Source: Bacteroidales bacterium
Lineage (GTDB): Bacteria > Bacteroidota > Bacteroidia > Bacteroidales > JAQUTK01
Assembly: GCA_028709785.1 (NCBI GenBank)
Contig: JAQUTK010000011.1
Coordinates: forward strand, 1 to 64,000
Length of the DNA stretch: 64,000 nucleotides
Direction of reading: 5' to 3'
The notes beneath the pieces were generated by a model. It ran no database searches and had not been told where the DNA came from. It saw nothing but the letters and a program-made list of their open reading frames with translations. This document shows, piece by piece, positions 5,557 to 58,914 of this stretch (its first letter is position 1; every line of letters starts with the position of its first letter). The translations under genes and the position numbers were made by a program.

Positions 5557-7809
5557 TTATTTACCGGTGTTTATATTGAGTGCTGATCCGGCTTTAAACC
5601 AGTCGATCTGCATTTGGTTATAGGTGTGTGACGCTTCAATTGACTCTTCTGTTCCATCCATGTGATGAATAAGAACCGTTAAGTTGGCACCCGGTTTAAA
5701 ATCACTCATGTGAATGATCGATAGAGTGTCATCTTCACGAATACGCTCATAGTCAGATGGATTTGCAAAAGTAAGCGCCAGCATTCCCTGTTTCTTCAGA
5801 TTGGTTTCGTGAATTCTGGCAAATGATTTGGCCAGAATGACTTTTACATTCAGAAAACGAGGTTCCATAGCAGCATGTTCGCGAGAGGAGCCTTCTCCAT
5901 AGTTCTCTTCTGCTACTACGATCGAAGAGATTCCTTCTTTCTTGTAGTACCTGCCTAAAGAGGAAACCGGAATATACTCTCCGTTCAGAGCATTTAGCAC
6001 CTGATTGGTCTTTCCGTTGAAAGCATTGACAGCACCCATGAGCAGGTTTTCAGAAATGTTTTCCAGATGTCCGCGATATTTAAGCCAGGGTCCGGCCATG
6101 GATATGTGGTCTGTGGTACATTTCCCTGAAGTCTTGATCAAGAGTCTCATCGCAAGCAGATCTTTTCCATCCCAGGGGCGGAATGGTTCCAACAACTGGA
6201 GTCTTGAAGAATCAGCACTGATTGTGATCTCTTCCTTGGTGTTTCCCGGAGCGAGATAACCGCTGTCTCCTTCTGAAAAGCCATTCAAAGGCAACGTGTC
6301 ACCGGTTGGTTCGTCGAGCATGACCCATTCACCACGCTCATTTTGAAGTTTATCTTTCAGCGGATTAAAACTGAGATCACCTGCTATAGTAAGAGCGAGC
6401 GTCAGTTCAGGAGAAGCGACAAAATGGAAAGTATTTGGATAACCGTCCGCCCGTTTGGCAAAATTCCGGTTGAAGGAAGAGACGATGGCGTTTTTGTGCT
6501 CCGAGTCTTTCATCTCCCGTTTCCACTGACCGATACACGGACCACATGCATTGACCATGATGGTGCCTCCGATGCTTCTGAATACTTCAATGATTCCATC
6601 TCTTTCGGCCGTCCGATAGATCATTTCAGAGCCCGGATTAATGAGCAGAGGTGATTTGACTTTCAGCCCTTTCTTCACCGCTTGAGTAGCAAGTGAGGCC
6701 GCGCGGCTCAGATCCTGATAAGAAGAGTTGGTGCATGATCCGATTAGTCCGCATTCCATATTTCTGGGATAATCCTGAATACGCACCTTTTCGGCAAACT
6801 CAGAGATGGTGCTTGCTGCGTCGGGAGTGAATGGTCCGTTGATATGTGGCTCCAAACTGGAAAGGTCGATCTCAATGATACGGTCATAATAGGTGTTGGG
6901 TGACTCAATCACTTCCGGATCAGCTTGCAACATTTGTGCAATACGCAAAGCTCCTTCTGCGACTTCTGCCCGGCTGGTTGCGCGCAAATATCTTTCCATC
7001 TCTTTGTCGTAAGGAAAAACGGATGAAGTAGCTCCAACTTCAGCACCCATATTACAGATGGTTGCTTTACCGGTTGCGGAGAGAGTGGTCGTTCCTTCGC
7101 CAAAATATTCCAGGATCGCATTGGTTCCACCTTTTACTGTCAGGATGCCTGCCAGTTTAAGAATAACATCTTTGGGCGTTGCCCATCCGTTGAGTTTACC
7201 GGTCAGCTTAATGCCGATAATCCGTGGCATTTTGAGTTCCCATTCCATGCCCGTCATGACATCTACCGCATCGGCACCACCCACACCAATAGCCAGCATC
7301 CCTAATCCGCCGGCATTGGGAGTATGAGAATCAGTACCCACCATTATTCCTCCGGGGAAAGCATAGTTTTCCAGTACCACCTGGTGAATAATACCTGCTC
7401 CCGGCTGCCAGAATCCGAGACCATATTTGCCGGATACACTTCTCAGAAAGTCATACACCTCTTTGTTTGTCATCAAGGCAGTGGACAGATCTTCTTCCGA
7501 ACCTCTGTGTGCCTGAATCAGGTGATCACAATGGACGGTTGCCGGAACGGCAGATTCATTGCGTCCGGCATTCATGAACTGGAGCAGTGCCATCTGTGCA
7601 GTCGCATCCTGCATGGCAACCCTGTCAGGGCGGAAATTAGCATATTCTGTACCACGCACATACTCTTTGACATCTTTCTGATCGTACAGATGTGCGTATA
7701 GGATCTTTTCTGCTAAAGTAAGGGGTCTGTTTAAGTGGGCTCTCACGTTTGCTATTCTTTCCGGATAGGAAGAGTAAACATCATTTATCATTCGAATATC
7801 ATGTATCAT
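5557..7809 (-). CDS. acn: Aconitate hydratase
   Basis: Isomerises citrate to isocitrate. The 750-residue product is of the mitochondrial-like aconitase A type found in Bacteroidetes. The three [4Fe-4S] cysteines are visible in [11 protein letters not shown] and [10 protein letters not shown], and active-site stretches include [24 protein letters not shown] and the swivel-domain [14 protein letters not shown]. It is the first gene of the operon, with icd and gltA following at minimal spacing. I could not find a perfect TAnnTTTG box upstream; a near match lies around 7855-7862. Confidence 0.95.
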
Positions 7810-7922
7810 TTTCTGCTAAGTTTTAGTAATTCAAGCTAAATATTCAACTTTTCGCAAAGTAGTAAATTCTTTTCTTATCTCAATTATCTCGCTATGAAAA
7901 TAAATATAACGAGGGTAGAATT

Positions 7923-7963
7923 AAAAAAAAAGAAGGCAAACTCCTTACGGATAAAGCCTTCTT
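7923..7963 (-). terminator. Intrinsic terminator of guaA
   Basis: Read on the minus strand, AAGAAGGC and GCCTTCTT form an 8-bp stem followed by a run of Ts. It begins about 25 bases past the guaA stop codon. Confidence 0.75.
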
Positions 7964-7988
7964 CTCTATGGTTAATTGCCGATCATGT

Positions 7989-9512
7989 TTATTCCCATTC
8001 AATGGTTGCAGGAGGCTTTGATGAAATGTCATAAGTGACACGATTGACACCTTTTACCTTATTGATAATCTCATTGGAGATTTTCCCCAGAAACTCATAA
8101 GGAAGATGTGCCCAATCAGCAGTCATCGCATCTGTAGAGGTTACAGCACGCAGGGCAACCGCACGTTCGTACGTCCGTTCGTCTCCCATCACTCCGACCG
8201 ATTGTACAGGAAGAAGGATAACCCCGGCCTGCCATACTTTGTCGTAAAGTCCCCAATCGCGTAATCCCTGGATAAAGATATCATCTGCTTCCTGAAGGAT
8301 TTGCACTTTCTCAGGGGTGATATCACCGAGGATACGTACGGCAAGTCCAGGTCCGGGGAAAGGATGACGACTTATCAGATGTTCCGGCATTCCCAGTTTG
8401 GTGCCAACACGGCGAACTTCATCTTTAAATAACAGACGAAGAGGTTCGCAAAGACTGAGGTTCATCTTTGCAGGAAGTCCTCCCACATTGTGATGGCTTT
8501 TGATAACGGTGCCGGTAATGGACAGCGATTCAATGCAATCAGGATATATTGTTCCCTGAGCCAGCCATTTTACATCTTTCAGTTTATGAGCTTCCTGATC
8601 GAAGACATCAATAAACCCTTTTCCGATGATTTTACGCTTTTTCTCCGGTTCGGTAACACCTTCGAGTTCGCTGAAGAACTTTTCGCTGGCGTCAACGCCA
8701 ATTACGTTCAGCCCCAGACACTCGTAATCCCTCATCACATTCTTGAACTCGTTCTTGCGGAGTAATCCGTGGTCAACAAATATACAGGTAAGGTTTTTAC
8801 CAATGGCTTTGTTGAGCAAAACTGCTGTTACAGAAGAATCGACACCACCGCTCAGTCCAAGCACTACTTTATCATCGCCCAGTTGCTCTTTCAGTTCGGC
8901 AACCGTGTTTTCAATAAAAGAAGCGGGAGACCAGTCTTGTGTACATCCACAAATGTTTACGACAAAGTTTTTAAGAATCTGTGTTCCGTCTTCGGTATGA
9001 TATACTTCCGGGTGGAATTGAACCCCCCAGATCTTTTCATTTTCTACCTGATAGGCTGCGATAGCAACTTCATCAGTGCTGGCAATTGTCTTGAAATAGG
9101 AGGGAACAGAGGTGATTGTATCTCCGTGAGACATCCAGACCTGTGAGTTCTCTTTCACATTTTGAAGAAGAGGATTATTTTTATCAAACATGCCCAGATG
9201 AGCACGTCCGTATTCACGGCTGCCTGCCGGTTCAACCGTGCCGCCATTGCTGTCTGCTATAAATTGTGCTCCATAACAGATACCAAGTACCGGATACTTT
9301 CCGCGAACCTTGTATAAATCCATCTTGAACGCATTCTGATCATACACAGAGAACGGACTTCCCGACAGAATAACTCCCTTTACAGATTCATCTCCTTCCG
9401 GAAATTTGTTGTAAGGAAGAATCTCGCAGAAGACATCCAGTTCGCGCACTCTGCGGCCGATTAACTGGGTTGTTTGGGAACCAAAGTCAAGAATGATGAT
9501 TTTTTCCTGCAT
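7989..9512 (-). CDS. guaA: GMP synthase (glutamine-hydrolysing)
   Basis: Converts XMP to GMP with ATP and glutamine, the last step of guanine nucleotide synthesis. The 507-residue two-domain protein has an N-terminal class I glutamine amidotransferase domain (nucleophile Cys79 in GICYGAQ, His167 and Glu169 in QFHPEV). It is followed by an ATP-pyrophosphatase domain with the PP-loop SGGVDSS at about 221-227, and a C-terminal dimerisation domain ending in KPPATIEWE. The length is normal. A TAATTTTG box lies just upstream on the minus strand, and the gene is divergent from a GH25 gene. Confidence 0.97.
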
Positions 9513-19001: not shown

Positions 19002-20174
19002 TTAGTACAAAAAACCAAAAAGCCAAATGGGAATAGGCCCTGTTTCTGATGAATCATCAGAGAAATAACAACTTTCCGGGTCTGTATCAGAACCGCTTTT
19101 TCTTCTTTCAATCCTGAAGTTCCATTTCTCATCAATAAGGAATGTGCTGTTCTTTTCTCCCTGATTGATAGTATGTCCCTTATATACAGCATTGATGAAG
19201 AATGTTTCCAGTAAAGCGAGTCTGTCTGATTCACCGGATTTGATGGCATAAATCAGATTTGTATTGTGAAGATATACCTTTGTAGGTTTCTTTGGAAAAT
19301 CTTCTCCCTGTTTGTAAATCAGGTTGATTACCCGGGCATCTTTTAAATATTTGATGTAGTTCATGACTGTTGCCCGTGATGTCATGATATCATTACTTAG
19401 CTGACTGACATTCGGCGAATCGGGAGCATTTTTTGCCAGGAGATTCAGCAATAGCTTTATCTTGTGCAGATACTTAAGCTCTATTTGTTTGATGAACAGA
19501 ATATCAACCTCAATCATCATATTGACAGTCTTAAGCAGGTTTTCTGAATAGTTCCTTTTTTCCAGAAAAAAAGGATAAAAGCCATGATGAAGATAAGACT
19601 GAAAATGGATTTCAGGGTTTACCAATGCCTTAATGGTGTTTGATATTTCCTTGTGATTGGATAATATCTCTTCAAACGTATAGGCCGAAAGGGTGCTGCC
19701 TGTTTTTAGGTTCAGGTACTCCCTGAATGAAAAGCCCCGAAGAAAGTATGAAGCGACAATTCCGGAAAGGTCGGGGTTTTCTTCTTTCAGCCGCATCACG
19801 GATGAACCGGTAAATACCACCTTGAGATCTTTGAAATTATCATAAATATATCGAAGTTCGCGCGACCAATCAGGATGTTTAAAAATCTGATCAATCAATA
19901 AGACCTTTCCTCCTTGCTTGATAAACCTTTCGGCAAACTCTATCAGCGTATGATCCGTAAAATAAAAATTATTCAGGTTGATATAGAGGCACGAACGATC
20001 CTCGCCAAAGAATTCTTTCGCATAGGAGAGAAGAAATGTGGTTTTACCTACACCTCTGGTCCCTTTTATTCCAATCAAACGGTCATTCCAGTCGATCTCA
20101 TCCATGAGACCCCGTCGCACTGGAGAACAAACATGTTTGACTAAATATTGGTGCGTTTTATAGAATGAATCCAT
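19002..20174 (-). CDS. AAA_14/DUF4143 ATPase with altered Walker B
   Basis: The 390-residue product is of the archaeal-type or DUF4143 ATPase family. It has the Walker A motif GTRGVGKTT at about 38-46, an N-terminal ATPase domain, a winged-helix-like middle (DIMTSRATVMNYIKYLKDARVI) and the family ending IPIWLFGFLY. The Walker B reads VLLIDQIFKHPDW; family members usually have Asp-Glu there, so the catalytic Glu (position 96) is replaced by Gln (codon CAG). The acidic DUF4143 nuclease-like segment is also short. It has its own promoter. Function is unknown for most members; many resemble mobile or defence-associated ATPases. The altered residue suggests weak or no ATP hydrolysis. Confidence 0.82.
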   Translation of the reverse strand: MDSFYKTHQYLVKHVCSPVRRGLMDEIDWNDRLIGIKGTRGVGKTTFLLSYAKEFFGEDRSCLYINLNNFYFTDHTLIEFAERFIKQGGKVLLIDQIFKHPDWSRELRYIYDNFKDLKVVFTGSSVMRLKEENPDLSGIVASYFLRGFSFREYLNLKTGSTLSAYTFEEILSNHKEISNTIKALVNPEIHFQSYLHHGFYPFFLEKRNYSENLLKTVNMMIEVDILFIKQIELKYLHKIKLLLNLLAKNAPDSPNVSQLSNDIMTSRATVMNYIKYLKDARVINLIYKQGEDFPKKPTKVYLHNTNLIYAIKSGESDRLALLETFFINAVYKGHTINQGEKNSTFLIDEKWNFRIERRKSGSDTDPESCYFSDDSSETGPIPIWLFGFLY

Positions 20175-46746: not shown

Positions 46747-48303
46747 ATGAAACGGATATTACAGACACTCTTTGCTTTGTTTTTAACAGGGGCTATGAGT
46801 ACTTTTGCTCAGGATACGTTGAATTATAAAAATGAATTGCCTCTTTCTTCTCCGGATTCAACGGTAGTTGATTCGATACAGTTATTGCAGAAAGAATATG
46901 AATCTGCGAAAAACTCTAATGCCTTAAAACCGTTGTTGAATATGATGGCCAATGAGGTTCTGAGGGAACTTAAGATAGCCCGGGAAGATTCCATTCGTCT
47001 CTCTGCTCAAAAACGTCACGAAGATTCCATCAATAATCCGAGAATGCCTTATTATATTGCGATGGACAGACGTGCTGACTCTTTGATCTCGATAGCAAGA
47101 CAGATTTTTGAAGTGCCCGCAGACTCTCTTTTGGACGATACATCTTTTAATCCTGACACCATTATTTTCAATGAGCTTTTTTATCCGATCGTTGTCATGA
47201 AAGACTTTGTCTACGACGGAAAGAAGCTGGCTAATTTTCATGATACGTTTAAGGTAAAAGTACCGTCATTCTCTCTCCCGATGCCGCCCAATTCGTTAGC
47301 ATATACCTATAAGGACTCTTTGGCTCAGTCTGCTCTGCGCTATTTGATTTTGAATCATCCGGAACTGATCAGCTACACAGAGGAAATGCTTACAAAAGGG
47401 GCAATCAAGACGGAAGTACTTCCGACAAAGCCTACTTTGGCTGATCTCAGCAATTTACCTCCGGCGGTGGTAACGGCCGACAAAGTGTCTTTAAAGATGA
47501 AAAAGCCAAGTTACTGGAATACCAAGGGAAAACTGAATCTAAACTTTTCACAGGCCTATCTGAGTGATAACTGGGGAGGAGATAATAATGTAGCTCTCTA
47601 CCCTGATTTGAGACTGGATGCAAATTACAATGACTTAAAGAGAATTACCTGGGAAAATTACTTGACATATTATTTGGGATTTACTACTTTACCTGAAAAA
47701 GTCAATGGACGTTCGTATCAGATTGCTCCTGATGAGTTGAGATTAAATTCTCAGTTAGGACTAAAAGCGATCGCCCGATGGAGCTACACCGTTACGGCGA
47801 CTCTGAAGACACAAACCTTTCAACAATATTCAGGGAAAAACGTTGTTAAAGCTTTCCTTTCTCCCGGATACTTTGATTTAAGTGTGGGTATGCGATATCG
47901 TTATCAAAACAAACCCGGCACCTTTACAATTACTTTCAATATAGACCCGTTGGTTTACGCTAATAGGTTTGTTATGGATACGGCAAAAGTTGATCAAAAA
48001 AGATATGGCATCCGGGCTGATCGAAAAAGTAAAGAGACGGTAAATGGATTGAAGATTACATCGGATATAAATTGGCAGATTGTAAAAAATATCTCTTACG
48101 TAGGTCGATTCTTATATAGATCTCCTTATGATGAAACGTATATGGAGTTGTATAATACGTTTACCTTTAGAGTAACAAGTAGCTTTTCGCCTGTGCTCAA
48201 AATTAATCTTATATATAATGATGCTCGCAAAAGACAGCCGGGAGAGAATTCCTATTTGCAATATCAGGAGACACTTGGCTTCGGATTTAATTTCTGGTGG
48301 TAA
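46747..48303 (+). CDS. DUF3078 outer-membrane protein
   Basis: The 518-residue product has a signal peptide (residues 1-21, ending MSTFAQ). A charged helical middle (about 30-240) has many Asp/Glu/Lys residues, and a C-terminal DUF3078 beta-barrel (about 255-518) carries the hallmark LNFSQAYLSDNWGGDNN. It ends in an aromatic residue pair (FNFWW), as usual for barrel insertion. The role is unknown, probably an outer-membrane channel or assembly factor. It is upstream of tRNA-Arg. Confidence 0.85.
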   Translation: MKRILQTLFALFLTGAMSTFAQDTLNYKNELPLSSPDSTVVDSIQLLQKEYESAKNSNALKPLLNMMANEVLRELKIAREDSIRLSAQKRHEDSINNPRMPYYIAMDRRADSLISIARQIFEVPADSLLDDTSFNPDTIIFNELFYPIVVMKDFVYDGKKLANFHDTFKVKVPSFSLPMPPNSLAYTYKDSLAQSALRYLILNHPELISYTEEMLTKGAIKTEVLPTKPTLADLSNLPPAVVTADKVSLKMKKPSYWNTKGKLNLNFSQAYLSDNWGGDNNVALYPDLRLDANYNDLKRITWENYLTYYLGFTTLPEKVNGRSYQIAPDELRLNSQLGLKAIARWSYTVTATLKTQTFQQYSGKNVVKAFLSPGYFDLSVGMRYRYQNKPGTFTITFNIDPLVYANRFVMDTAKVDQKRYGIRADRKSKETVNGLKITSDINWQIVKNISYVGRFLYRSPYDETYMELYNTFTFRVTSSFSPVLKINLIYNDARKRQPGENSYLQYQETLGFGFNFWW

Positions 48304-48418: not shown

Positions 48419-48490
48419 GCACCTATAGTTCAATGGATAGAATATCGGATTCCGGTTCCGACGATTGGGGTTCGAGTCCCCATAGGTGTA
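48419..48490 (+). tRNA. tRNA-Arg (anticodon CCG)
   Basis: A 72-base cloverleaf: 7-bp acceptor stem GCACCTA/TAGGTGT (first pair G-T), a D arm, anticodon stem TCGGA/TCCGA with loop TTCCGGT (anticodon CCG, reading CGG), and a T arm with GGTTCGAGTCC. The discriminator A is encoded and CCA is not. Confidence 0.9.
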
Positions 48491-48612
48491 CAAAGCTCGG
48501 CGTTTATCTCCCATACACATTGTTCATAAGTTTTCAGAACGGAAGATGACAACCGTCCGGTGTCTCGTCTGTGTTTCGTTGGATAGAAGTAAAATACGAT
48601 AGAACAAGGCAA

Positions 48613-48652
48613 AATAGTCCACAAAATAAAACTTTGTGGACTATTCTTTTTT
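48613..48652 (+). terminator. Intrinsic terminator downstream of tRNA-Arg
   Basis: AATAGTCCACAAA (48613-48625) and TTTGTGGACTATT (48633-48645) form a perfect 13-bp stem with a 7-base loop followed by CTTTTTT. It probably ends the tRNA transcript. Confidence 0.8.
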
Positions 48653-48701
48653 ATCGAATTTCTGCATCTCATCGGCTCATCCAATAAAGAACGGGTGAGT
48701 C

Positions 48702-50072
48702 CTAAAAGGCCCGAACTGCTCTAACATTCCATGAGCTTGTTTTATAGGGACTACCAGAAGCTTGTGAGCCTGAGGAAAATGATTGAGTCCAAGCATCCCT
48801 ATCACTCTTCTCTGAAGAACTCCAATAAATGGGTGCATAGGTCACAAAAGCATGACCTCCGTTCGCAAGCAGTGTGGCTTCAATAATGTTTTTCTGGACA
48901 TACATTTGATTTAATTCATCTTTTGATGGCAAGAACCAATCTGAGTAACCTGAGAAAGAATAATTATCACAAACTTTTGCGGCATATGACCCCTCACCTT
49001 GTACTCTAACAATCGCTGCGGTGTTAGTTTGACCGGTTCCAATTTCTGTTCCTGTGGCTCCGGTAGATATAGAACTGCCATTATTCCACTTTATCCCGTC
49101 TTCTTGGTCTTCTTTTGCACAGACCAAACCGTGTTGTTCACCTTCTACATAGCCCGGATCATTCGGTTGAAAAAGATAAAAAATGACACCGCCAAATGCA
49201 TAATCACCAACAGTATAGATTCTGACTTCTATTTCCTGACTATATGAAATTCCTGCATTATTAACCACATAAGTTTTAATATAATAGGTCTTTCCAGATG
49301 AAATTCCTTTCGTAAGTGTACCTGAAAACGAGCCTGTTCCATCTTTACAAACAAGTGTATAATCAGCAACAGTAGGATTAGGACTTTCAGAATAGCAAAA
49401 CCCTTTTTCTATTATTGTTCCTCCTCCTGATATAACAAGGCTATTGCAGAGAATGCTATTTGAAGAAATAACATCTATTTTTGGCTTAATTACTTCTGCT
49501 GGTTGATTGGTTAAATAATTATCTTTCCATACAGGAACCCCATTTTCCAGCATCAACACTTTCCCGTCTAGTGAAGGCGCGATGGTATTCCATTGAGTCC
49601 CATCCCAGTATTTCATTTCTCCTACCGTTGTACCATCAGGACAAGTACCGGTATTGCCAGAGGCATTACCTGCCGATTTGGCATATAGCGCATATGGAAC
49701 ACTTAACAACTTACTGGAACTAAGAAGAGAATAACTCGTACCCCCGCTCAAGTCGTAACTGGTACTTATATTGACATTACCATTCTCCCATTTGATACCG
49801 GAAAAAGTGCCGGATATTACATTACCTCCACCAATTTCCAAAGTCAGCAGTCCGTTTTCGTTTGTGGTAACATGGTGCGACTCACTGTAGATCACAGTGG
49901 GAAGAAATGACCCCTGTGTAATAGAAACCAATACACCTATTAATTGATTCTTGATTAATTCTCCACTTTCGTCGCGAACCACAGCCTGATAACTCATTTT
50001 CTCGGGCACTTGTGCTAACAGACAAGATACTATTGACAGGAAAAACAACAATAAGATTGATGCTCGTTTCAT
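48702..50072 (-). CDS. Secreted protein with C-terminal DUF1566/Lcl-like domain
   Basis: The 456-residue product has a signal peptide (residues 1-20, ending CLLAQ). An N-terminal part is of a type common in Bacteroidetes surface proteins (VPEKMSYQAVVRDESGELI; SGTFSGIKWENGN), followed by a short linker with GTQWNTIAPSLDGKVLML and a fibronectin-like region (about 195-285). The C-terminal DUF1566/Lcl domain contains GGVIFYLFQPNDPGY, DWFLPSKDELNQMY and YWSSSEKSD. It is probably surface-exposed, but no T9SS sorting domain is visible in this chain. It is downstream in an operon with the T9SS-sorted protein (6-base gap). Confidence 0.82.
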   Translation of the reverse strand: MKRASILLLFFLSIVSCLLAQVPEKMSYQAVVRDESGELIKNQLIGVLVSITQGSFLPTVIYSESHHVTTNENGLLTLEIGGGNVISGTFSGIKWENGNVNISTSYDLSGGTSYSLLSSSKLLSVPYALYAKSAGNASGNTGTCPDGTTVGEMKYWDGTQWNTIAPSLDGKVLMLENGVPVWKDNYLTNQPAEVIKPKIDVISSNSILCNSLVISGGGTIIEKGFCYSESPNPTVADYTLVCKDGTGSFSGTLTKGISSGKTYYIKTYVVNNAGISYSQEIEVRIYTVGDYAFGGVIFYLFQPNDPGYVEGEQHGLVCAKEDQEDGIKWNNGSSISTGATGTEIGTGQTNTAAIVRVQGEGSYAAKVCDNYSFSGYSDWFLPSKDELNQMYVQKNIIEATLLANGGHAFVTYAPIYWSSSEKSDRDAWTQSFSSGSQASGSPYKTSSWNVRAVRAF

Positions 50073-50078
50073 ATTCTT

Positions 50079-50567
50079 TTAGTTTTTGATGATTTTAAAT
50101 GTTTTTACTACCGTATTCTTCTTGAGAATCTTCACAAAGTAAGTTGCAGGGACAAAATTGCTCATATTTATACTTGTCACATTACTTACAAGCACTTTGT
50201 GAAGCAAGAGCTTTCCCTTCGCGTCGAATAATTGAAAGTTTAAGGTTGAAAGTTCCATATTGTCTGAAGAAAGATGTAATATATTTTTAACAGGATTTGG
50301 ATAAGCAGAAATAGTCAGCTTAATACTCTCAGCCTCATCAATCGATGAGATCACCGATATTTCATAAGGCTGTTGTACACCTTCAGATACAGAACCATTC
50401 GTGCCATTTAATTTTTGGGTTCCGATTTGTCCAATGGAATAGCAGACTGAGCCACCACTACCTATAGCTTTACCACCTGATGCTATAATCGTTTTCTGTG
50501 CTTGTAATCCTGTTATCCCAAGCCAGAGTAAAAGAAGCACACTTAATCTCAATTGTTTGTATTGCAT
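50079..50567 (-). CDS. Small protein with type IX secretion sorting domain
   Basis: The 162-residue product has a signal peptide (about 1-24, WLGITGLQAQ). A short mature part of some 50 residues has SGGKAIGSGGSVCYSIGQIG and GSVSEGVQQPYEI. A C-terminal type A sorting domain follows (SAYPNPVKNILHLSS; LFDAKGKLLLHKVL; YFVKILKKNTVVKTFKIIK), the signal for export by T9SS and surface attachment. The start at 50567 is preferred over 50615, since the latter puts 16 polar residues before the signal. It is the first gene of the operon. The CTD implies the genome encodes a T9SS, which is not in this window. Confidence 0.85.
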   Translation of the reverse strand: MQYKQLRLSVLLLLWLGITGLQAQKTIIASGGKAIGSGGSVCYSIGQIGTQKLNGTNGSVSEGVQQPYEISVISSIDEAESIKLTISAYPNPVKNILHLSSDNMELSTLNFQLFDAKGKLLLHKVLVSNVTSINMSNFVPATYFVKILKKNTVVKTFKIIKN

Positions 50568-50704
50568 ATACGACCTATATATATTTCTACTCAAGAAACT
50601 ACAATTCGAACTCAACTACAGAAAACTCATATGTAGCTAAAACACATTGCGAAAGTAATATAAATATTTTAAAATATAAGAAATAAGAGAGATGTTTGCA
50701 GATA

Positions 50705-52489
50705 CTATGAATAAAAAAAGAAATCCATCTTCTTCTTTCTCTCTGTCAGCCAGTTGGAATTATCAAAGAGCGCCGGGGAGAATCCTCTTTTTGAAGATTT
50801 TGACGGCTCGATTGGTACATAGCGGCCATTGGTCAGATTGAAGGCGAAGGTCGCTTCACCACATTTGCCCAGGTTTCTGAACTTTACCTTTTGTACATGA
50901 ATCGTACATTGATTGGTGTCGTTGTCGCGCACCACCGCAAATCCAAAATCTGTTTTGTTGAAGAAGTTCGCCGAACCGTTGATGGTGTATAAGTCCGGCA
51001 CCGCAAACTTCTTGGTCACAGGGTCTTTCTCTATCTTACGGGGATGCGCCACCAGTACGACCAGTGTGTCTGTGCTGATGGCAAAGTTCGTCAGTTTGTC
51101 CAGAAAGCGGCTGATGTATGTTGTCTCCTTTTCTCCGTTCTTAAATTGATGTTCCAATCGGTTGTAAGGGTCAATGACCAACATCTTGATCCCATTTCTG
51201 CGTACCAGTTCGCGTGCTTTGGATATGATGTTATCCACGCGATATCCCTCTTTGGGGCCGATAGAAAATACATTCTCCTTCAAAAAGTCACATACTTCGC
51301 TGTATTCGTCCATCGAGGTGATCCCTTTTTTAAAGATCTTTCCCGTCAGCTTCTCCGCCAGTTTTGCATAGTGGCGTTGCACCGGAAGATTTTCCGGACT
51401 GAAGTAGGCTGTTTTCCATCCATGCTTCAGGATCATGTTGATGACGATCTGATCCATGAACTCCGATTTGCCACTGCCGGGAATACCGGTCACCACACAA
51501 AGTCTTCCGGTTTCCAATGTCAGGTAAGGATCCAGGTTGTCATATCCGATGCTCAGACCCGGCTGTAGTCCGTTTTCAAAAAGCTCGTACAACTCGTCTT
51601 TCACATCCTCCGCAGTTACCACACCCTCCAATGGACACTCCGGTGCCTGTTGCAGACAGACCTGCAAACTTTCCACCCCGTACTTTTGCAGGTGTTCATT
51701 GGCATCCTTGCAATCCTTGCCGTAGGTCACCACCCGGCACCGCTCTTTACCAAAGCGTCGTAGCAATTCCTTGCACAGCATCTTTCCCTTCTCATCTGTA
51801 TCGACGGCGATATAAATGATCTCTTTATTTTCAAAATGCGACTCGACAAAAGGGTTCAGCCATTCCAGATTATCATTCGCCCCATTGGGTACGCTGATCA
51901 CGTCGTAGTGTCCGGCAGCCATAAAACTCATGGCATCCGGTTCCCCCTCGGTGAGGATGCATTCTTTGGTATCCTTGATGCCGTCGATATTCCAGGGAGT
52001 CAGTTTGGCTCCTGCCACCAGAGCAAAATGTTTTTCTGCATCCCGATACTTGGTGTTTACCAGTTCGTCGTCCACAAAATAATTAAATCCCATACACCTG
52101 ACTTGCTTTCCGACAGCCGACATGAAATGCATCTCCTCCGAGATCAACATCTTCTGAAGCACCTCTTGCGGGATGCACCGTTGCTCGACGAAGTAGCGAA
52201 CCAGTTCGTCGCTCAGCATCGTTTTGTTTGAGTCAAACACCGGTCTGCGAAAATGAGCAGGAACCTCCGCGTTGCATCTCTTCTCCCGATCCGGCTTTTG
52301 TTCACCCGGCTTGAGCGCTCTACCCGCCCAGTTGCAATAGAAACAGCGGAAAGCGCCGGTGGTTGTATCAATAAACAGTGACTTGTCTCTCTTGTCTTTG
52401 CGTCTGTCAGCACACACCGGACAGTGCGCTTTTACCTTTTTGCCCTCTTTGGCCGTTACAATCCTGTAACCCTCGTAGTTAAAATCCAT
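50705..52489 (-). CDS. Twinkle/T7 gp4-like primase-helicase
   Basis: The 594-residue product combines, in order, a zinc ribbon (CPVC and CFYC, about residues 21-55), a toprim domain (ILTEGEPDAMSF at about 180; IYIAVDTDEKGK at about 225) and a DnaB/RecA-like helicase core. The core has Walker A VTGIPGSGKSEF (about 335) and Walker B MLVIDPYNRL. This layout matches phage T7 gp4 and mitochondrial Twinkle, which open and/or prime DNA. The base composition by eye is more G+C-rich than in flanking genes. It follows the Lin1244 gene by 16 bases. It is probably from a phage or integrative element, but no integrase, capsid or relaxase is nearby. Confidence 0.85.
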   Translation of the reverse strand: MDFNYEGYRIVTAKEGKKVKAHCPVCADRRKDKRDKSLFIDTTTGAFRCFYCNWAGRALKPGEQKPDREKRCNAEVPAHFRRPVFDSNKTMLSDELVRYFVEQRCIPQEVLQKMLISEEMHFMSAVGKQVRCMGFNYFVDDELVNTKYRDAEKHFALVAGAKLTPWNIDGIKDTKECILTEGEPDAMSFMAAGHYDVISVPNGANDNLEWLNPFVESHFENKEIIYIAVDTDEKGKMLCKELLRRFGKERCRVVTYGKDCKDANEHLQKYGVESLQVCLQQAPECPLEGVVTAEDVKDELYELFENGLQPGLSIGYDNLDPYLTLETGRLCVVTGIPGSGKSEFMDQIVINMILKHGWKTAYFSPENLPVQRHYAKLAEKLTGKIFKKGITSMDEYSEVCDFLKENVFSIGPKEGYRVDNIISKARELVRRNGIKMLVIDPYNRLEHQFKNGEKETTYISRFLDKLTNFAISTDTLVVLVAHPRKIEKDPVTKKFAVPDLYTINGSANFFNKTDFGFAVVRDNDTNQCTIHVQKVKFRNLGKCGEATFAFNLTNGRYVPIEPSKSSKRGFSPALFDNSNWLTERKKKMDFFFYS

Positions 52490-52505
52490 CTTGTTAACGT
52501 TCTGA

Positions 52506-53414
52506 TTAGTTGGTCCACTGATTGCATTCCTGATTCCATCTCACACTACAATCGGGTCGAGGAGGTGCATCGGGAGGAATCACTATGCCAAAACAACTGC
52601 GTATACCGGTCTTCGGATCATAGTCTTCATACGGATAAGGATCCTCACTTCGAAGCTCTTCCCGGAGCCTCTCTTCCAGCCTGAGATGCGTTGTGGTGCC
52701 CGGACGGATATAATTGGAGAAGTAGCTCTTCGCATCCCGAAGCGAATAAATATTCTTTTCAGTGCCCAGCTCCTGGATATGATCTTTAAAACATTGCCCG
52801 ATCAAGAGCCGATTCTCCTCAAAAACCTCCTTAAGAGCTGATTTTCTGCCCATTAAGCCAATCCACCGTTTATCTTCAAAAGCCTGATCAATAAAATACT
52901 CCCATTGCGATACAGGGAGTTGTTCCGTTTTCTCCTGAATCGTATCCTCACAGACTGTTGCTGCTTTTTTACCTTCTGAATAAGAAGTTTTTTTATTCTT
53001 CTCTACTTTACTCTTTTCTACTCTATTTGCTTCTTCTTCTGAAGGATTAGTATCGCTGTTATTCAGAGCTTTAGCAGCTGCACCTTTCTTGCCATTTTCC
53101 GACGATTTGTTTTTCTTAACATCGTATGGTTCCATTCTTTTGATCAATCCGGGTGAATAAAACGAATCTTCCTTCACGATAAACAGATCAAAGTCCGTGA
53201 CCACTTTCATGAGTTTGGTGCATGAGATCTTTACTTTTCGAGCAAGAGACCGGATGGCGCTTACGTTGCTGCAATATCCATCTTGCGCACGCAGATGTTC
53301 GATCAGCACCCAGTAAGCACCATACATTTCGAGACCACCGTTTTCAATCAGATTCATGAGTTTAACATCGCTGAGTGCTAAAAGATCATGCGGAAAGTAG
53401 AGCAATTTTTTCAT
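52506..53414 (-). CDS. Lin1244/DUF4373-type replication-associated protein
   Basis: From the ATG at 53414 the product has 302 residues, starting MKKLLYFPHDLLALSDVKLM. The N-terminal domain (1-95) resembles Lin1244/Lin1753 or DUF4373 domains found in phage and element replication proteins (GLEMYGAYWVLIEHLRAQDGY, then a helix-turn-helix-like NVSAIRSLARKVKIS). A Lys/Glu/Ser-rich linker (about 110-160) and a helical C-terminal part follow (KEVFEENRLLIGQCFKDHI). The open frame extends upstream to 53504 but over the promoter, so the shorter start is used. It is followed by the primase-helicase gene. Confidence 0.75.
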   Translation of the reverse strand: MKKLLYFPHDLLALSDVKLMNLIENGGLEMYGAYWVLIEHLRAQDGYCSNVSAIRSLARKVKISCTKLMKVVTDFDLFIVKEDSFYSPGLIKRMEPYDVKKNKSSENGKKGAAAKALNNSDTNPSEEEANRVEKSKVEKNKKTSYSEGKKAATVCEDTIQEKTEQLPVSQWEYFIDQAFEDKRWIGLMGRKSALKEVFEENRLLIGQCFKDHIQELGTEKNIYSLRDAKSYFSNYIRPGTTTHLRLEERLREELRSEDPYPYEDYDPKTGIRSCFGIVIPPDAPPRPDCSVRWNQECNQWTN

Positions 53415-53461
53415 TTGTGTTGTTTTTAGAAAGAGCACTTCATTGTGCTTTTTTTCAGTTA

Positions 53462-53469
53462 CAAATGTA
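53462..53469 (-). promoter_or_regulatory. -7 element of the primase operon
   Basis: CAAATGTA on the plus strand is TACATTTG on the minus strand, 48 bases before the Lin1244-type gene. No TTG element is clear; the 10-base repeats at 53491-53520 occupy the region upstream. Confidence 0.5.
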
Positions 53470-53490
53470 CAACCCCCGCAAGAGTGAATG

Positions 53491-53520
53491 AGAGTCTTTG
53501 ACACTCTTTGAAACTCTTGT
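53491..53520. repeat. Three 10-base tandem repeats upstream of the primase operon
   Basis: AGAGTCTTTG, ACACTCTTTG and AAACTCTTGT lie head to tail with exact 10-base spacing, about one DNA helical turn. They begin about 22 bases upstream of the -7 element (in the minus direction). They could be a binding site for a regulator or iterons for replication initiation. Confidence 0.5.
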
Positions 53521-53577
53521 GGCAGCTAGTGGATGATAAATAAGATAATAATAGATGTTTTAACAGAAAAGACCGGA

Positions 53578-54174
53578 TTATGTAGCCAGATAAACAACAT
53601 TCGTCCCCTTGCCGAAGCGTTGAATCAATCCTTTTATCATCCAGTTATTCAGGTCGCGTATGGCACGTGTTTTTGCGCAACCCGTGAGCCGTTCATAGTC
53701 TGTCCTTGACATTGCTCTGTTTGTCGACAGAAAGTGCAACGCCATCGCCAGCCTTTCCTCTATGGTTCGTTCCGGAATCACCGCACTCTTCGCTTTCCGC
53801 AGCAATCGCATCCCCGCCATTTTCTCCTTCAACCAGGAACTGGCGCGAAACCTCACATTACCAAACCGCACCGAATCCGCATGGATGGCAGACTCCTCCT
53901 TTGATTCTTTACACTTCAGTGACGGAGAAAAGAAACCGAACCCCTCCAGTTCGACGGAGTTGCCCTCAGCCAATTGTCGCGCCATGGCTTCCGACACAGC
54001 CGAAAGCATGCCCAACAGTTCGCCCCGGTTAAAAGTCGAAGCATCGGCGATCTGATCCACCAATGTGCTGGTTGTCACCGTTTTCCCTTTTACTACCCGG
54101 GCATGCAGCCTGGGAGCCGAACTGCTCTCCGCTTTTCTGACCGGAGTTACAAACAAATCATACAATGCACTCAT
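53578..54174 (-). CDS. HU-family DNA-binding protein with C-terminal winged-helix-like extension
   Basis: The 198-residue product begins with an HU/HIG-type domain (about 1-115: LVDQIADASTFNRGELLGML, EGNSVELEGFGFFSPSLK). A C-terminal extension (about 130-198) has a wHTH pattern (MALHFLSTNRAMSRTDYERLTG; RAIRDLNNWMIKGLIQRFGK). HU proteins bend DNA. The fusion and its place just upstream of the Lin1244-primase pair suggest a role in that module, such as regulation or origin binding, but this is inference. G+C looks higher than in flanking genes. Confidence 0.8.
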   Translation of the reverse strand: MSALYDLFVTPVRKAESSSAPRLHARVVKGKTVTTSTLVDQIADASTFNRGELLGMLSAVSEAMARQLAEGNSVELEGFGFFSPSLKCKESKEESAIHADSVRFGNVRFRASSWLKEKMAGMRLLRKAKSAVIPERTIEERLAMALHFLSTNRAMSRTDYERLTGCAKTRAIRDLNNWMIKGLIQRFGKGTNVVYLAT

Positions 54175-54260
54175 AAATAGATACTACAACGAGGTCCTTT
54201 ACCCCGGATAATTGAACAAATTTCATACTGAAGCGATCCTTTTCGCATGCCTATGCAAGC

Positions 54261-54284
54261 TCCGTTTCACGTTCGTGAAACGGA
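54261..54284. repeat. 11-bp-arm palindrome containing GTTTCACG
   Basis: TCCGTTTCACG and CGTGAAACGGA are perfect inverted repeats separated by TT. The core CGTTTCA-N6-TGAAACG is shared with the 15161-15218 hairpin. It also resembles a parS half-site pair (GTTTCACG/CGTGAAAC) with two extra bases. The rest of the 54175-54495 gap shows no gene. Confidence 0.7.
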
Positions 54285-54452
54285 ACAAACAACCTGATGT
54301 TTGGCGCTGCATATCCTTATAAAGATACAACATTATCAGGCGAAAAGCAAGAATAATCACTTCTTAATTTAAGAAAAAAGGCGATAATAGAAGGAAATAA
54401 TAATAAAGAAGCGAGATATTTGGAATAAAGAACTATTTTCGTCTCGGGAAAG

Positions 54453-57055: not shown

Positions 57056-57092
57056 AACTGAAAGTTCAGTTTACTGCACCCCGTGATGCAGT
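57056..57092. repeat. 37-bp repeat flanking the AbiE module, copy R1
   Basis: 34 of 37 bases match R2 at 58878-58914, in the same orientation. Within it AACTGAA-AG-TTCAGTT and ACTGCA-N8-TGCAGT are inverted repeats. It lies 4 bases beyond propeller copy 2. Confidence 0.8.
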
Positions 57093-57181: not shown

Positions 57182-57787
57182 ATGCAAAGTCTTGATGATA
57201 AGATAATTCAGAGCATTAAAAAATGCGGACGAGGGAAAATTTATTTTACCTCTGATTTTGTGCGTTATGGTGAGAGCAAATCAGCCAATAAAGCATTAGA
57301 GAGGCTTGTGAAATCTAATGATATAATACGCATTGCAAGAGGCATCTATTATTATCCTAAAATAGACAAAAAGCTGGGATTGGGTGTTCTTTATCCATCG
57401 TTAGAATCAATTGCCGAGGCGATTGCGAAGAGGGATAAAGCCAAGATTATTCCAGCAGGGGCTTACGCGCTCAATCGGATTGGGCTATCGACCCAAGTTC
57501 CGATGAATATTGTTTACCAGACTGACGGATCACCTCGAAAAATTAGAATAGGCAATGGTAAAGGTATTCAATTTATCCGTACAGCACCCAAAAAACTTGC
57601 CTACAAAAATGAGTTGAACCTGTTGATTGTTCTTGCTCTCAAAGAGATTACGGAAGGAAAAGTTACGGATGAACAAATTGCTCATATTAAGAAATTACTA
57701 ACCAACGAACCAAAAGAGAGGATTATGCAGGATTTGCAACTGATGCCCTCATGGATTCGGTCGATAATAATGAAATGTTATGAATAG
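57182..57787 (+). CDS. AbiEi-type antitoxin (DUF6088 family)
   Basis: Antitoxin half of a type IV toxin-antitoxin pair. The 201-residue product has an N-terminal winged-helix domain (KCGRGKIYFTSDFVRYGES, then ALERLVKSNDIIRIARGIYYYP) typical of the AbiEi/DUF6088 antitoxin family. A C-terminal domain (IPAGAYALNRIGLSTQVP onward) antagonises the toxin in the family. The upstream palindrome suggests autorepression. Its last codons overlap the toxin gene by 8 bases, the usual coupling of such pairs. Confidence 0.88.
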   Translation: MQSLDDKIIQSIKKCGRGKIYFTSDFVRYGESKSANKALERLVKSNDIIRIARGIYYYPKIDKKLGLGVLYPSLESIAEAIAKRDKAKIIPAGAYALNRIGLSTQVPMNIVYQTDGSPRKIRIGNGKGIQFIRTAPKKLAYKNELNLLIVLALKEITEGKVTDEQIAHIKKLLTNEPKERIMQDLQLMPSWIRSIIMKCYE

Positions 57788-58784
57788 CAGTTTTTTCTTC
57801 ATCTCCGAAGCACAAAAACGCACGGTTATAGAGCAAGCTGGTCTGAAAATGAATTTGCCGGTACAAGCTATAGAGAAAGATTTGTGGGTAACTGTAATAC
57901 TTCAAATATTATTCACTCTAAAATTTGCAGATAAATTGGTATTCAAAGGTGGAACATCTTTGAGTAAGGTCTGGCGGATAATCAACCGCTTGTCCGAAGA
58001 TATTGACATAGTTATAGACCGGGAAATCTTTGGAATGAGCGGAGATTTGACTATTAAACAGATTAAATTGCTTCGTAAAAGATCATCTCTGTTTGTGAAA
58101 AACGAACTATGCGATGCTATGCAAGCAAAAATTATTGAGTTAGGGCTAAATGCCTATTGTCAAGTAGAGGCTGAACCTGACGGTGATGGCGACAAAACCT
58201 ATCCTGAACCACGTAGGATATTCATTCGATATAACACATTGTTTGATAACATGAACTATCTTCTGCCTGTAGTAGTGCTGGAAGTTGGCTCACGTTCATT
58301 GTTCGAGCCCACGGAAAAACATAAAGTGAGGAGTCTTATTTCCGAGAATTTGCCTGTTAATACAGATATTACTGACATAGAAATTACTACTGCTGTGCCA
58401 GAAAAGACTTTTCTTGAAAAGGCTTTTTTGCTTCACGAGGTATTTACAGCAGGTGGTATAATGGAGGCTAATCGCAAATCGCGTCACCTCTACGATTTGG
58501 AGCGAATGATGGATAGAGATTTTGCATTATCGGCAATTACCAATGATGAGTTGTGGCGAAATATTCATCACCACCGCGAGCTATTTACCCGTGTCAGTGG
58601 GGTTGATTACAGTTCGGATATTCGTCCGAGAATATCTATTATTCCTCCCGAAAGCGTTATTGAAGACTGGGAAATGGATTATGTTGCTATGCAAAGGTCT
58701 ATGATTTATGGTGACTCCTTGCCATTTGAAATGCTTTTAGATCGATTAAGAGAATTGCAAAACAGGTTTCATGAGAAAAAATAA
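57780..58784 (+). CDS. AbiEii/AbiGii-type nucleotidyltransferase toxin
   Basis: Toxin half of the pair, a nucleotidyltransferase that in studied relatives blocks growth upon phage infection, some by modifying tRNA ends. The 334-residue product has the family motifs: GGTSLSKVW (motif I, about 59-67), SEDIDIVID (motif II catalytic Asp pair), KTFLEKAFLLHE (motif III, Lys) and RHLYDLERM (motif IV, Asp). The set looks complete, so the toxin is probably active. It is translated from a start inside the antitoxin's end. Confidence 0.88.
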   Translation: MNSSFFFISEAQKRTVIEQAGLKMNLPVQAIEKDLWVTVILQILFTLKFADKLVFKGGTSLSKVWRIINRLSEDIDIVIDREIFGMSGDLTIKQIKLLRKRSSLFVKNELCDAMQAKIIELGLNAYCQVEAEPDGDGDKTYPEPRRIFIRYNTLFDNMNYLLPVVVLEVGSRSLFEPTEKHKVRSLISENLPVNTDITDIEITTAVPEKTFLEKAFLLHEVFTAGGIMEANRKSRHLYDLERMMDRDFALSAITNDELWRNIHHHRELFTRVSGVDYSSDIRPRISIIPPESVIEDWEMDYVAMQRSMIYGDSLPFEMLLDRLRELQNRFHEKK

Positions 58785-58877: not shown

Positions 58878-58914
58878 AACTGAAAGATCAGTTTACTGCA
58901 CCCAGTGATACAGT
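58878..58914. repeat. 37-bp repeat flanking the AbiE module, copy R2
   Basis: Second copy of R1 (three mismatches). It lies 93 bases after the toxin stop and 16 bases beyond the acyl-CoA ligase stop on the minus strand. With R1 it brackets the toxin-antitoxin module (about 1.8 kb). Confidence 0.8.

What the first reader, a model, noticed from the sequence alone, without database searches (positions are those of the whole stretch)
50705..54174. Orphan replication module: HU/winged-helix fusion, Lin1244-type protein, Twinkle-like primase-helicase
Three genes with the look of a phage or element replication module stand together with no integrase, relaxase, capsid, terminase or partition gene on either side. 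Composition looks more G+C-rich than in neighbours. Either it is a decayed element, or it is a retained host cassette, which would be an undescribed use of a primase-helicase in a Bacteroidales chromosome.
Basis: partly seen in the sequence, partly recalled or inferred. Interest (0 to 1): 0.72.

Follow-up and report, generated by a model that had tools for sequence, protein, structure and literature searches.

The report
Phage-like replication cassette fixed in chromosome
Three phage-type DNA-replication genes sit in this gut-type bacterium's chromosome with no virus or transfer genes around them; they are kept intact by natural selection at the same spot in a sister species, and relatives of the set carry what looks like a built-in replication start site, so this is a retained replication unit rather than junk, although its job is not known.

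Summary
The trio is real: HU-HIG/winged-helix protein, Lin1244/DUF7833 initiator-like protein, and T7 gp4-type Toprim-DnaB primase-helicase. It is not a dead prophage. A sister species keeps it at the same locus (tRNA-Arg ... acyl-CoA synthetase) with dN/dS 0.10 for the primase, 0.28 and 0.22 for the other two, and dS close to neighbouring genes. The genome has three full initiator-primase copies, a fourth cut by a contig end and a fifth decayed; no integrase lies on those contigs. Related chromosomal cassettes occur in 25 of 399 genomes of another Bacteroidales family (probably Bacteroidaceae), usually with HU, DUF4248 and an amidase, often beside glycosyltransferase loci or toxin/defence genes. 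There the initiator-primase spacer carries tandem 22-bp iterons in 13 of 15 cases, against 5 such arrays in 204 kb of control DNA, and the unit differs between clades. Window-genus paralogs have 22-bp iterons upstream of the initiator; the window copy has only a short 10-bp array, and a 2.1-kb insertion removed the primase C-terminal tail. High G+C is a property of the primase gene everywhere, not of this locus. Best reading: a chromosomally fixed, phage-derived replicon cassette under selection. Origin firing and biological role are inferred.

The parts
53578..54174 (-). HU-HIG DNA-binding protein with C-terminal winged-helix-like part (198 aa), first gene of the cassette
   Evidence: PF18291 E 3e-33; orthologue 83% identical at the same locus in G001, dN/dS 0.22; also first gene in the C15 and C9 copies
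52506..53414 (-). Lin1244/DUF7833 replication-initiator / helicase-loader-like protein (302 aa from the conserved start)
   Evidence: PF14297 E 1e-7 and PF25200 E 5e-12; PHROG 2562 'replication initiation protein'; orthologue 79% identical, dN/dS 0.28; model with a winged-helix N-terminal domain
50705..52489 (-). T7 gp4-type bifunctional primase-helicase (594 aa); last ~24 residues replaced by the edge of an insertion
   Evidence: motif residues E181, D230, D232, K341, D440, H482, R521 identical in four copies; dN/dS 0.10 against G001
53415..53577 (-). HU-Lin1244 spacer with a short array of 10-bp direct repeats (TCTTTGAAAC x2.4 at 53495-53518); candidate initiator-binding site, weak
   Evidence: TRF score 41 in the window, 64 (x3.9) in the same spacer of G001; aligned by eye
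54175..54345 (-). Conserved leader: palindrome CCGTTTCACGTTCGTGAAACGG (hairpin) and a TTG-N20-TATCTTTA promoter-like pair
   Evidence: conserved in G001; RNA fold z -2.45; promoter assignment from the known Bacteroides -33/-7 consensus (own knowledge)
48575..50723 (.). 2.15-kb insertion (Lcl_C-domain and Por-secretion-tail genes) absent from G001, between tRNA-Arg and primase; it removed the primase tail
   Evidence: breakpoints from blastn against G001; gene families
48419..48491 (+). tRNA-Arg(CCG) bordering the cassette in both species
57182..58784 (+). AbiEi/AbiEii defence pair next to the cassette; only a ~110-bp remnant is left in G001
   Evidence: PADLOC E 2e-68 and 1e-91; remnant

Best explanation
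The trio is a phage-derived replicon cassette fixed in the chromosome and maintained by selection, one member of a wider Bacteroidales family of integrase-less replication cassettes. Proposed working: the HU/winged-helix protein binds and bends the leader and controls the operon. The Lin1244 protein binds a repeat array next to or within its own gene, melts DNA there and loads the primase-helicase, so that replication starts in place on the chromosome, or on invading DNA that carries matching sites. Shown: intact enzymatic motifs, purifying selection, locus stability, multiple copies, absence of recombinases, and iteron arrays in relatives. Inferred: protein-DNA contacts, origin firing, and the benefit to the host, for which conflict with phages or local amplification and spread of neighbouring surface/defence genes are the leading ideas.
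For: Same locus in a sister species with only the trio between tRNA-Arg and acyl-CoA synthetase. dN/dS 0.10/0.28/0.22 with dS 0.41-0.46, against dS 0.52-0.69 in four flanking genes; primase dN/dS 0.08-0.21 in four pairs from other genomes and 0.05 in a duplicate pair. Three full initiator-primase copies in the own genome, the other two 60 and 52% identical to the window copy. The window-genus copies form one clade (SH-aLRT 99) inside a clade of chromosomal cassettes next to a prophage group; 2 label changes suffice. 22-bp arrays in 13/15 initiator-primase spacers against 5 in 204 kb of control and 6 in 230 kb of the rest of the same loci; mean autocorrelation z 5.8 at 22 and 4.3 at 44, same with dinucleotide shuffles. 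22-bp repeats upstream of Lin1244 in the C4 and C49 copies; 21-bp arrays inside the initiator gene in three G012 copies. No integrase or resolvase on the contigs of any copy.
Against: The window copy itself has no 22-bp array and has lost the acidic ELPF tail that its paralogs and phage relatives keep, so this copy may be partly impaired. One of five own copies has decayed. Only two species of the genus were available, so selection within the genus rests on one pair. No expression or replication data. Iteron function is inferred from sequence only. The Lin1244 structural matches are weak.
Confidence: 0.62

Rival explanations
1. Decayed prophage or integrative element whose replication genes have not yet been lost.
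For: The proteins are phage-type; it lies directly downstream of a tRNA gene, a usual integration place; a truncated copy exists at C49; the window primase has lost its tail.
Against: dN/dS 0.10 at dS 0.41 between species with all three genes open; no attachment-site repeat; the same gene set is intact in many genomes without other phage genes.
Confidence: 0.12
2. A phage satellite (PICI/PICMI-like): the cassette replicates when a helper phage infects and is packaged, with integration done in trans or lost.
For: Replication genes plus an origin-like array, phage ancestry, an endolysin-like hydrolase in many relatives, defence genes beside it, and two near-identical copies with sharp ends in one genome.
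Against: No integrase or att repeats at any own copy; known satellites carry an integrase (PMC10803314); same locus held across species.
Confidence: 0.13
3. Anti-phage function: initiator and primase-helicase act on the DNA of incoming phages with related origins, sequestering or mis-priming their replication.
For: Beside AbiE, AbiL (RloAB) and a MORC/GajA-like pair in the three own loci and beside TA/RM-type genes in others; 208 PADLOC models matched by 103 neighbours against 25 by 111 controls. From memory, Burroughs et al. 2017 (Cell Cycle) predicted that Bacteroidetes HU expansions deal with invading elements; that paper could not be read here.
Against: The trio itself matches no PADLOC model; co-location alone may mark a variable hot spot.
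Confidence: 0.2
4. Host back-up primosome for replication restart.
For: Purifying selection, and an SSB-like acidic tail in several copies.
Against: Patchy distribution: 5 of 393 genomes of the order and 25 of 399 in the richest family; multiple diverged copies and iteron arrays are not expected of a housekeeping factor.
Confidence: 0.05

Closest known systems
T7 gp4 / Twinkle-type primase-helicases (PHROG 239)
   Same: Zn-ribbon, Toprim and DnaB-like helicase in one chain; best PDB matches are T7 gp4 chains
   Different: Chromosomal, selected, without any other phage genes; window copy lacks the acidic C-terminal tail
Replication modules of Bacteroidota phages (e.g. phage vB_RanS_PJN03)
   Same: Initiator-like gene directly before the primase-helicase; repeats inside the initiator gene
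   Different: Phage modules lie among ERF, SSB, nuclease and an integrase; the trio does not
Phage satellites (PICI, P4, PICMI)
   Same: Small replication-capable unit with phage-type primase, often next to defence genes
   Different: Satellites have integrase and att sites (PMC10803314); none here
Iteron replicons of plasmids and phages
   Same: Initiator gene beside tandem repeats of fixed period that change together with the initiator clade
   Different: Fixed in the chromosome, no partition or transfer genes; window copy has only a weak array
Bacteroidales HU / DUF4248 / amidase cassettes near capsule loci
   Same: HU-HIG gene family, neighbouring replication genes, multiple copies per genome
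   Different: Window genus has the order HU-Lin1244-primase, no DUF4248 or amidase, no glycosyltransferases nearby

Membership tests
T7 gp4-type primase-helicase | Toprim active residues (E, DxD) and helicase Walker A/B, H and Arg residues | tested here: met
   E181, D230, D232, K341, D440, H482, R521 identical in all four aligned copies; Pfam and PHROG matches
T7 gp4-type primase-helicase | N-terminal four-cysteine Zn-ribbon | tested here: met
   CPxC and CxxC pairs present in the three complete aligned copies; weak Pfam match E 0.019
T7 gp4-type primase-helicase | Primase and 5'-3' helicase activity | not testable with these tools
   needs protein
Intact prophage | Integrase and structural genes in the same element | tested here: not met
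   no integrase on the contig; ORFs between pyrG and acyl-CoA synthetase hold no phage structural gene
Phage satellite (PICI/PICMI) | Own integrase and flanking att repeats | tested here: not met
   definition from PMC10803314
Phage satellite (PICI/PICMI) | Induction and packaging by a helper phage | not testable with these tools
   needs infection experiment
Iteron replicon | Tandem repeats of constant period next to the initiator gene | tested here: inconclusive
   met in relatives (13/15 spacers) and in own C4 and C49 copies; window copy has only a 10-bp array of 2.4 units
Iteron replicon | Initiator binds the repeats and origin fires | not testable with these tools
   needs binding and replication assays
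Known anti-phage system (PADLOC) | Match of a component to a PADLOC model | tested here: not met
   none of the three proteins matches at 1e-5

The most novel reading that the evidence does not exclude
Integrase-free elements that replicate in place: initiator, iterons and primase-helicase amplify the surrounding chromosome on a cue such as phage infection, and the amplified neighbourhood, with capsule or defence genes, spreads by transduction and homologous recombination. That would explain the lack of integrases, the linkage to surface-polysaccharide and defence genes, the multiple copies and the clade-specific iterons.
Probability: 0.15. Interest if true: 0.88.

Novelty: new variant of a known kind. 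Interest (0 to 1): 0.62.

Why it matters
If right, many Bacteroidales chromosomes hold several small origins with their own initiator and helicase-primase, outside any mobile element and preserved by selection. This would add to the single-origin picture of these chromosomes, offer a route for amplification or transfer of capsule and defence genes in gut bacteria, and give a first testable function to the HU-HIG, Lin1244/DUF7833 and DUF4248 families; the paper library held no description of the first two.

Tried and rejected
Foreign origin from G+C: rejected, the bias follows the primase gene across genomes. Attachment-site duplication at tRNA-Arg: none. Origin inside the window's Lin1244 linker: no significant DNA repeat there; repeats in other linkers are partly protein-level. 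Structure of Lin1244: usable model, but only generic winged-helix matches and no decisive relative. Gut 'phage' records MT836259, MT836811 and MT839949 as evidence of phage carriage: rejected, at least the first two look like chromosomal pieces with efflux or glycosyltransferase genes. Standard sigma-70 promoter scan: no more hits than shuffles. Literature: no relevant paper in the library on Lin1244, DUF7833 or the HU-HIG domain; Burroughs 2017 on the HU superfamily not held.

Full report
What is there. Three minus-strand genes stand in the order HU-HIG (53578-54174), Lin1244/DUF7833 (52506-53414 by the conserved start) and primase-helicase (50705-52489). The last is a T7 gp4-type enzyme: Zn-ribbon cysteines, Toprim residues and helicase motifs are all in place, and the best solved relatives are T7 gp4 chains, with Twinkle further down. 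The neighbours are pyrG, yidC, tRNA-Arg, two secreted-type proteins, two beta-propeller genes, AbiEi/AbiEii and an acyl-CoA synthetase (pyrG, yidC and the synthetase named by eye).

It is stable and selected. In G001, a second species of the genus, one contig runs yidC-pyrG-tRNA-Arg-primase and another Lin1244-HU-acyl-CoA synthetase. This is the same locus without the window's accessory genes. Relative to G001 the window carries a 2.15-kb insertion at 48575-50723, which replaced 32 bp and cut the primase tail, plus the beta-propellers; AbiE is reduced to about 110 bp in G001. dN/dS (Nei-Gojobori) is 0.10 for the primase, 0.28 for Lin1244 and 0.22 for HU, with dS 0.41-0.46; pyrG, yidC, the gene at 46747 and the acyl-CoA synthetase give 0.05-0.22 with dS 0.52-0.69. 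So the trio was inherited vertically and is under constraint, most strongly the primase. Five primase pairs from other genomes give 0.05-0.21 (the lowest is a duplicate pair inside one genome).

Copies in the own genome. The primase occurs on C55 (window), C4 and C15, the latter two at 60 and 52% identity to the window copy. Lin1244 occurs at these three, at C9 (cut by the contig end, preceded by HU) and at C49 (truncated, no primase, followed by an AAA/DUF4143-like gene). HU-HIG has 17 members, some in HU-small ORF-amidase sets. Tyrosine recombinases lie on C54, C57, C60, C65 and C67 and resolvases on C41, never on the contigs of the trio copies.

Distribution. Full-length relatives are rare in the order (5 of 393 genomes) and commoner in one family, f59, probably Bacteroidaceae (names are not given): 25 of 399 genomes, some with 2-3 copies. 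I read 14 such chromosomal loci. Lin1244 directly precedes the primase in all; HU was recognised in 12 of them, missing in L123 and L126; DUF4248 on the other strand and an amidase are frequent. Four further loci look like real prophages by eye (YqaJ-like and DEAD-helicase genes). In the tree the window genus is one clade (SH-aLRT 99) within a 26-row clade of chromosomal copies next to those prophages; two changes of state explain the phage/chromosome labels. In G012 the sets have HU plus glucosaminidase, in G326 an M15 peptidase, a VapE-like primase and Gam. Two G326 units, 97% identical over one stretch and 89% over another, have sharp ends, so such units can still duplicate.

Neighbourhood. 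Of 103 neighbours of cassettes, 11 match Glycos_transf_2 and 9 Glycos_transf_1; in 111 proteins from arbitrary control stretches of the same genomes neither is among the 25 listed families, the last of which have two members. All of this comes from f59; I saw none in the window genus. PADLOC models matched: 208 against 25, a rough measure because models overlap. The three own loci lie beside AbiE, AbiL (RloAB) and a MORC/GajA-like pair.

Candidate origin. Tandem Repeats Finder on the Lin1244-primase spacers of f59 loci and one gut scaffold found arrays of period 21-23 in 13 of 15 (5.4 kb), against 5 in 204 kb of control and 6 in 230 kb of the remaining parts of the same loci. Mean autocorrelation peaks at 22 (z 5.8) and 44 (z 4.3); dinucleotide shuffles give the same. 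The unit differs between clades and is shared inside them (e.g. L121/L122, L114/L115). In G012, 21-bp arrays lie inside the initiator gene, in frame. In the window genus the spacer is only 9-16 bp; C4 and C49 have about four 22-bp units just upstream of Lin1244 and C15 has 2.4-3 upstream of HU. The window and G001 have instead a 10-bp array in the HU-Lin1244 spacer, 2.4 and 3.9 units. This pattern is typical of an initiator and its iterons, but binding and firing are inferred.

Composition. Primase GC3 is higher than Lin1244 GC3 in every locus with both genes, so the G+C excess does not show recent import.

C-terminal tail. Most phage copies and the window-genus paralogs end in acidic ..PF tips like that of SSB; f59 cassettes do not. 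The window copy lost it through the insertion. Its function is unknown.

Judgement. The new element is the origin-like array in the relatives, which turns an unexplained primase-helicase into a probable chromosomal replicon. The main weakness is that the window copy is the least complete example of the set.

Noticed in passing
window 57056-57092 and 58878-58914: 37-nt direct repeats, 92% alike, flank the AbiEi/AbiEii pair and occur nowhere else in the genome; each consists of two small palindromes.
   Followed up: partly
L079 2037-2145: A 110-bp remnant of the AbiEi start in G001: the defence pair was deleted there while the trio was kept.
   Followed up: partly
L154, L155, L158 (own genome C34, C54, C15): HU-HIG + 91-95 aa helical ORF + N-acetylmuramoyl-L-alanine amidase-like sets, some beside BspA-like repeat proteins, without a primase.
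   Followed up: no
L033 12895-13161, L032 about 19230-19290, L174 900-1094: Small ORFs before HU or Lin1244 share a motif like ..L.DILQMMFGE.. / ADILRIMFGE / RDILIGMYD; none seen in the window copy.
   Followed up: partly
L174 2401-3745 (own contig C9): A three-Cys-motif partner-like gene and a Gp37/Gp68-like gene next to the cut-off fourth HU-Lin1244 copy, named by eye.
   Followed up: no
L115 spacer 7780-9052: A 159-bp unit repeated 7 times in the initiator-primase spacer, next to the 22-bp array.
   Followed up: no
L137 9809-10461 and L146 140-281: 22-bp tandem arrays also occur in two control regions; they may mark other, unexamined cassettes.
   Followed up: no
L048 5760-13600 and L049 6490-13850: Two closely similar VapE / primase-helicase / Lin1244 / M15 peptidase units in one complete genome (G326) with sharp ends and no integrase recognised by eye.
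   Followed up: partly
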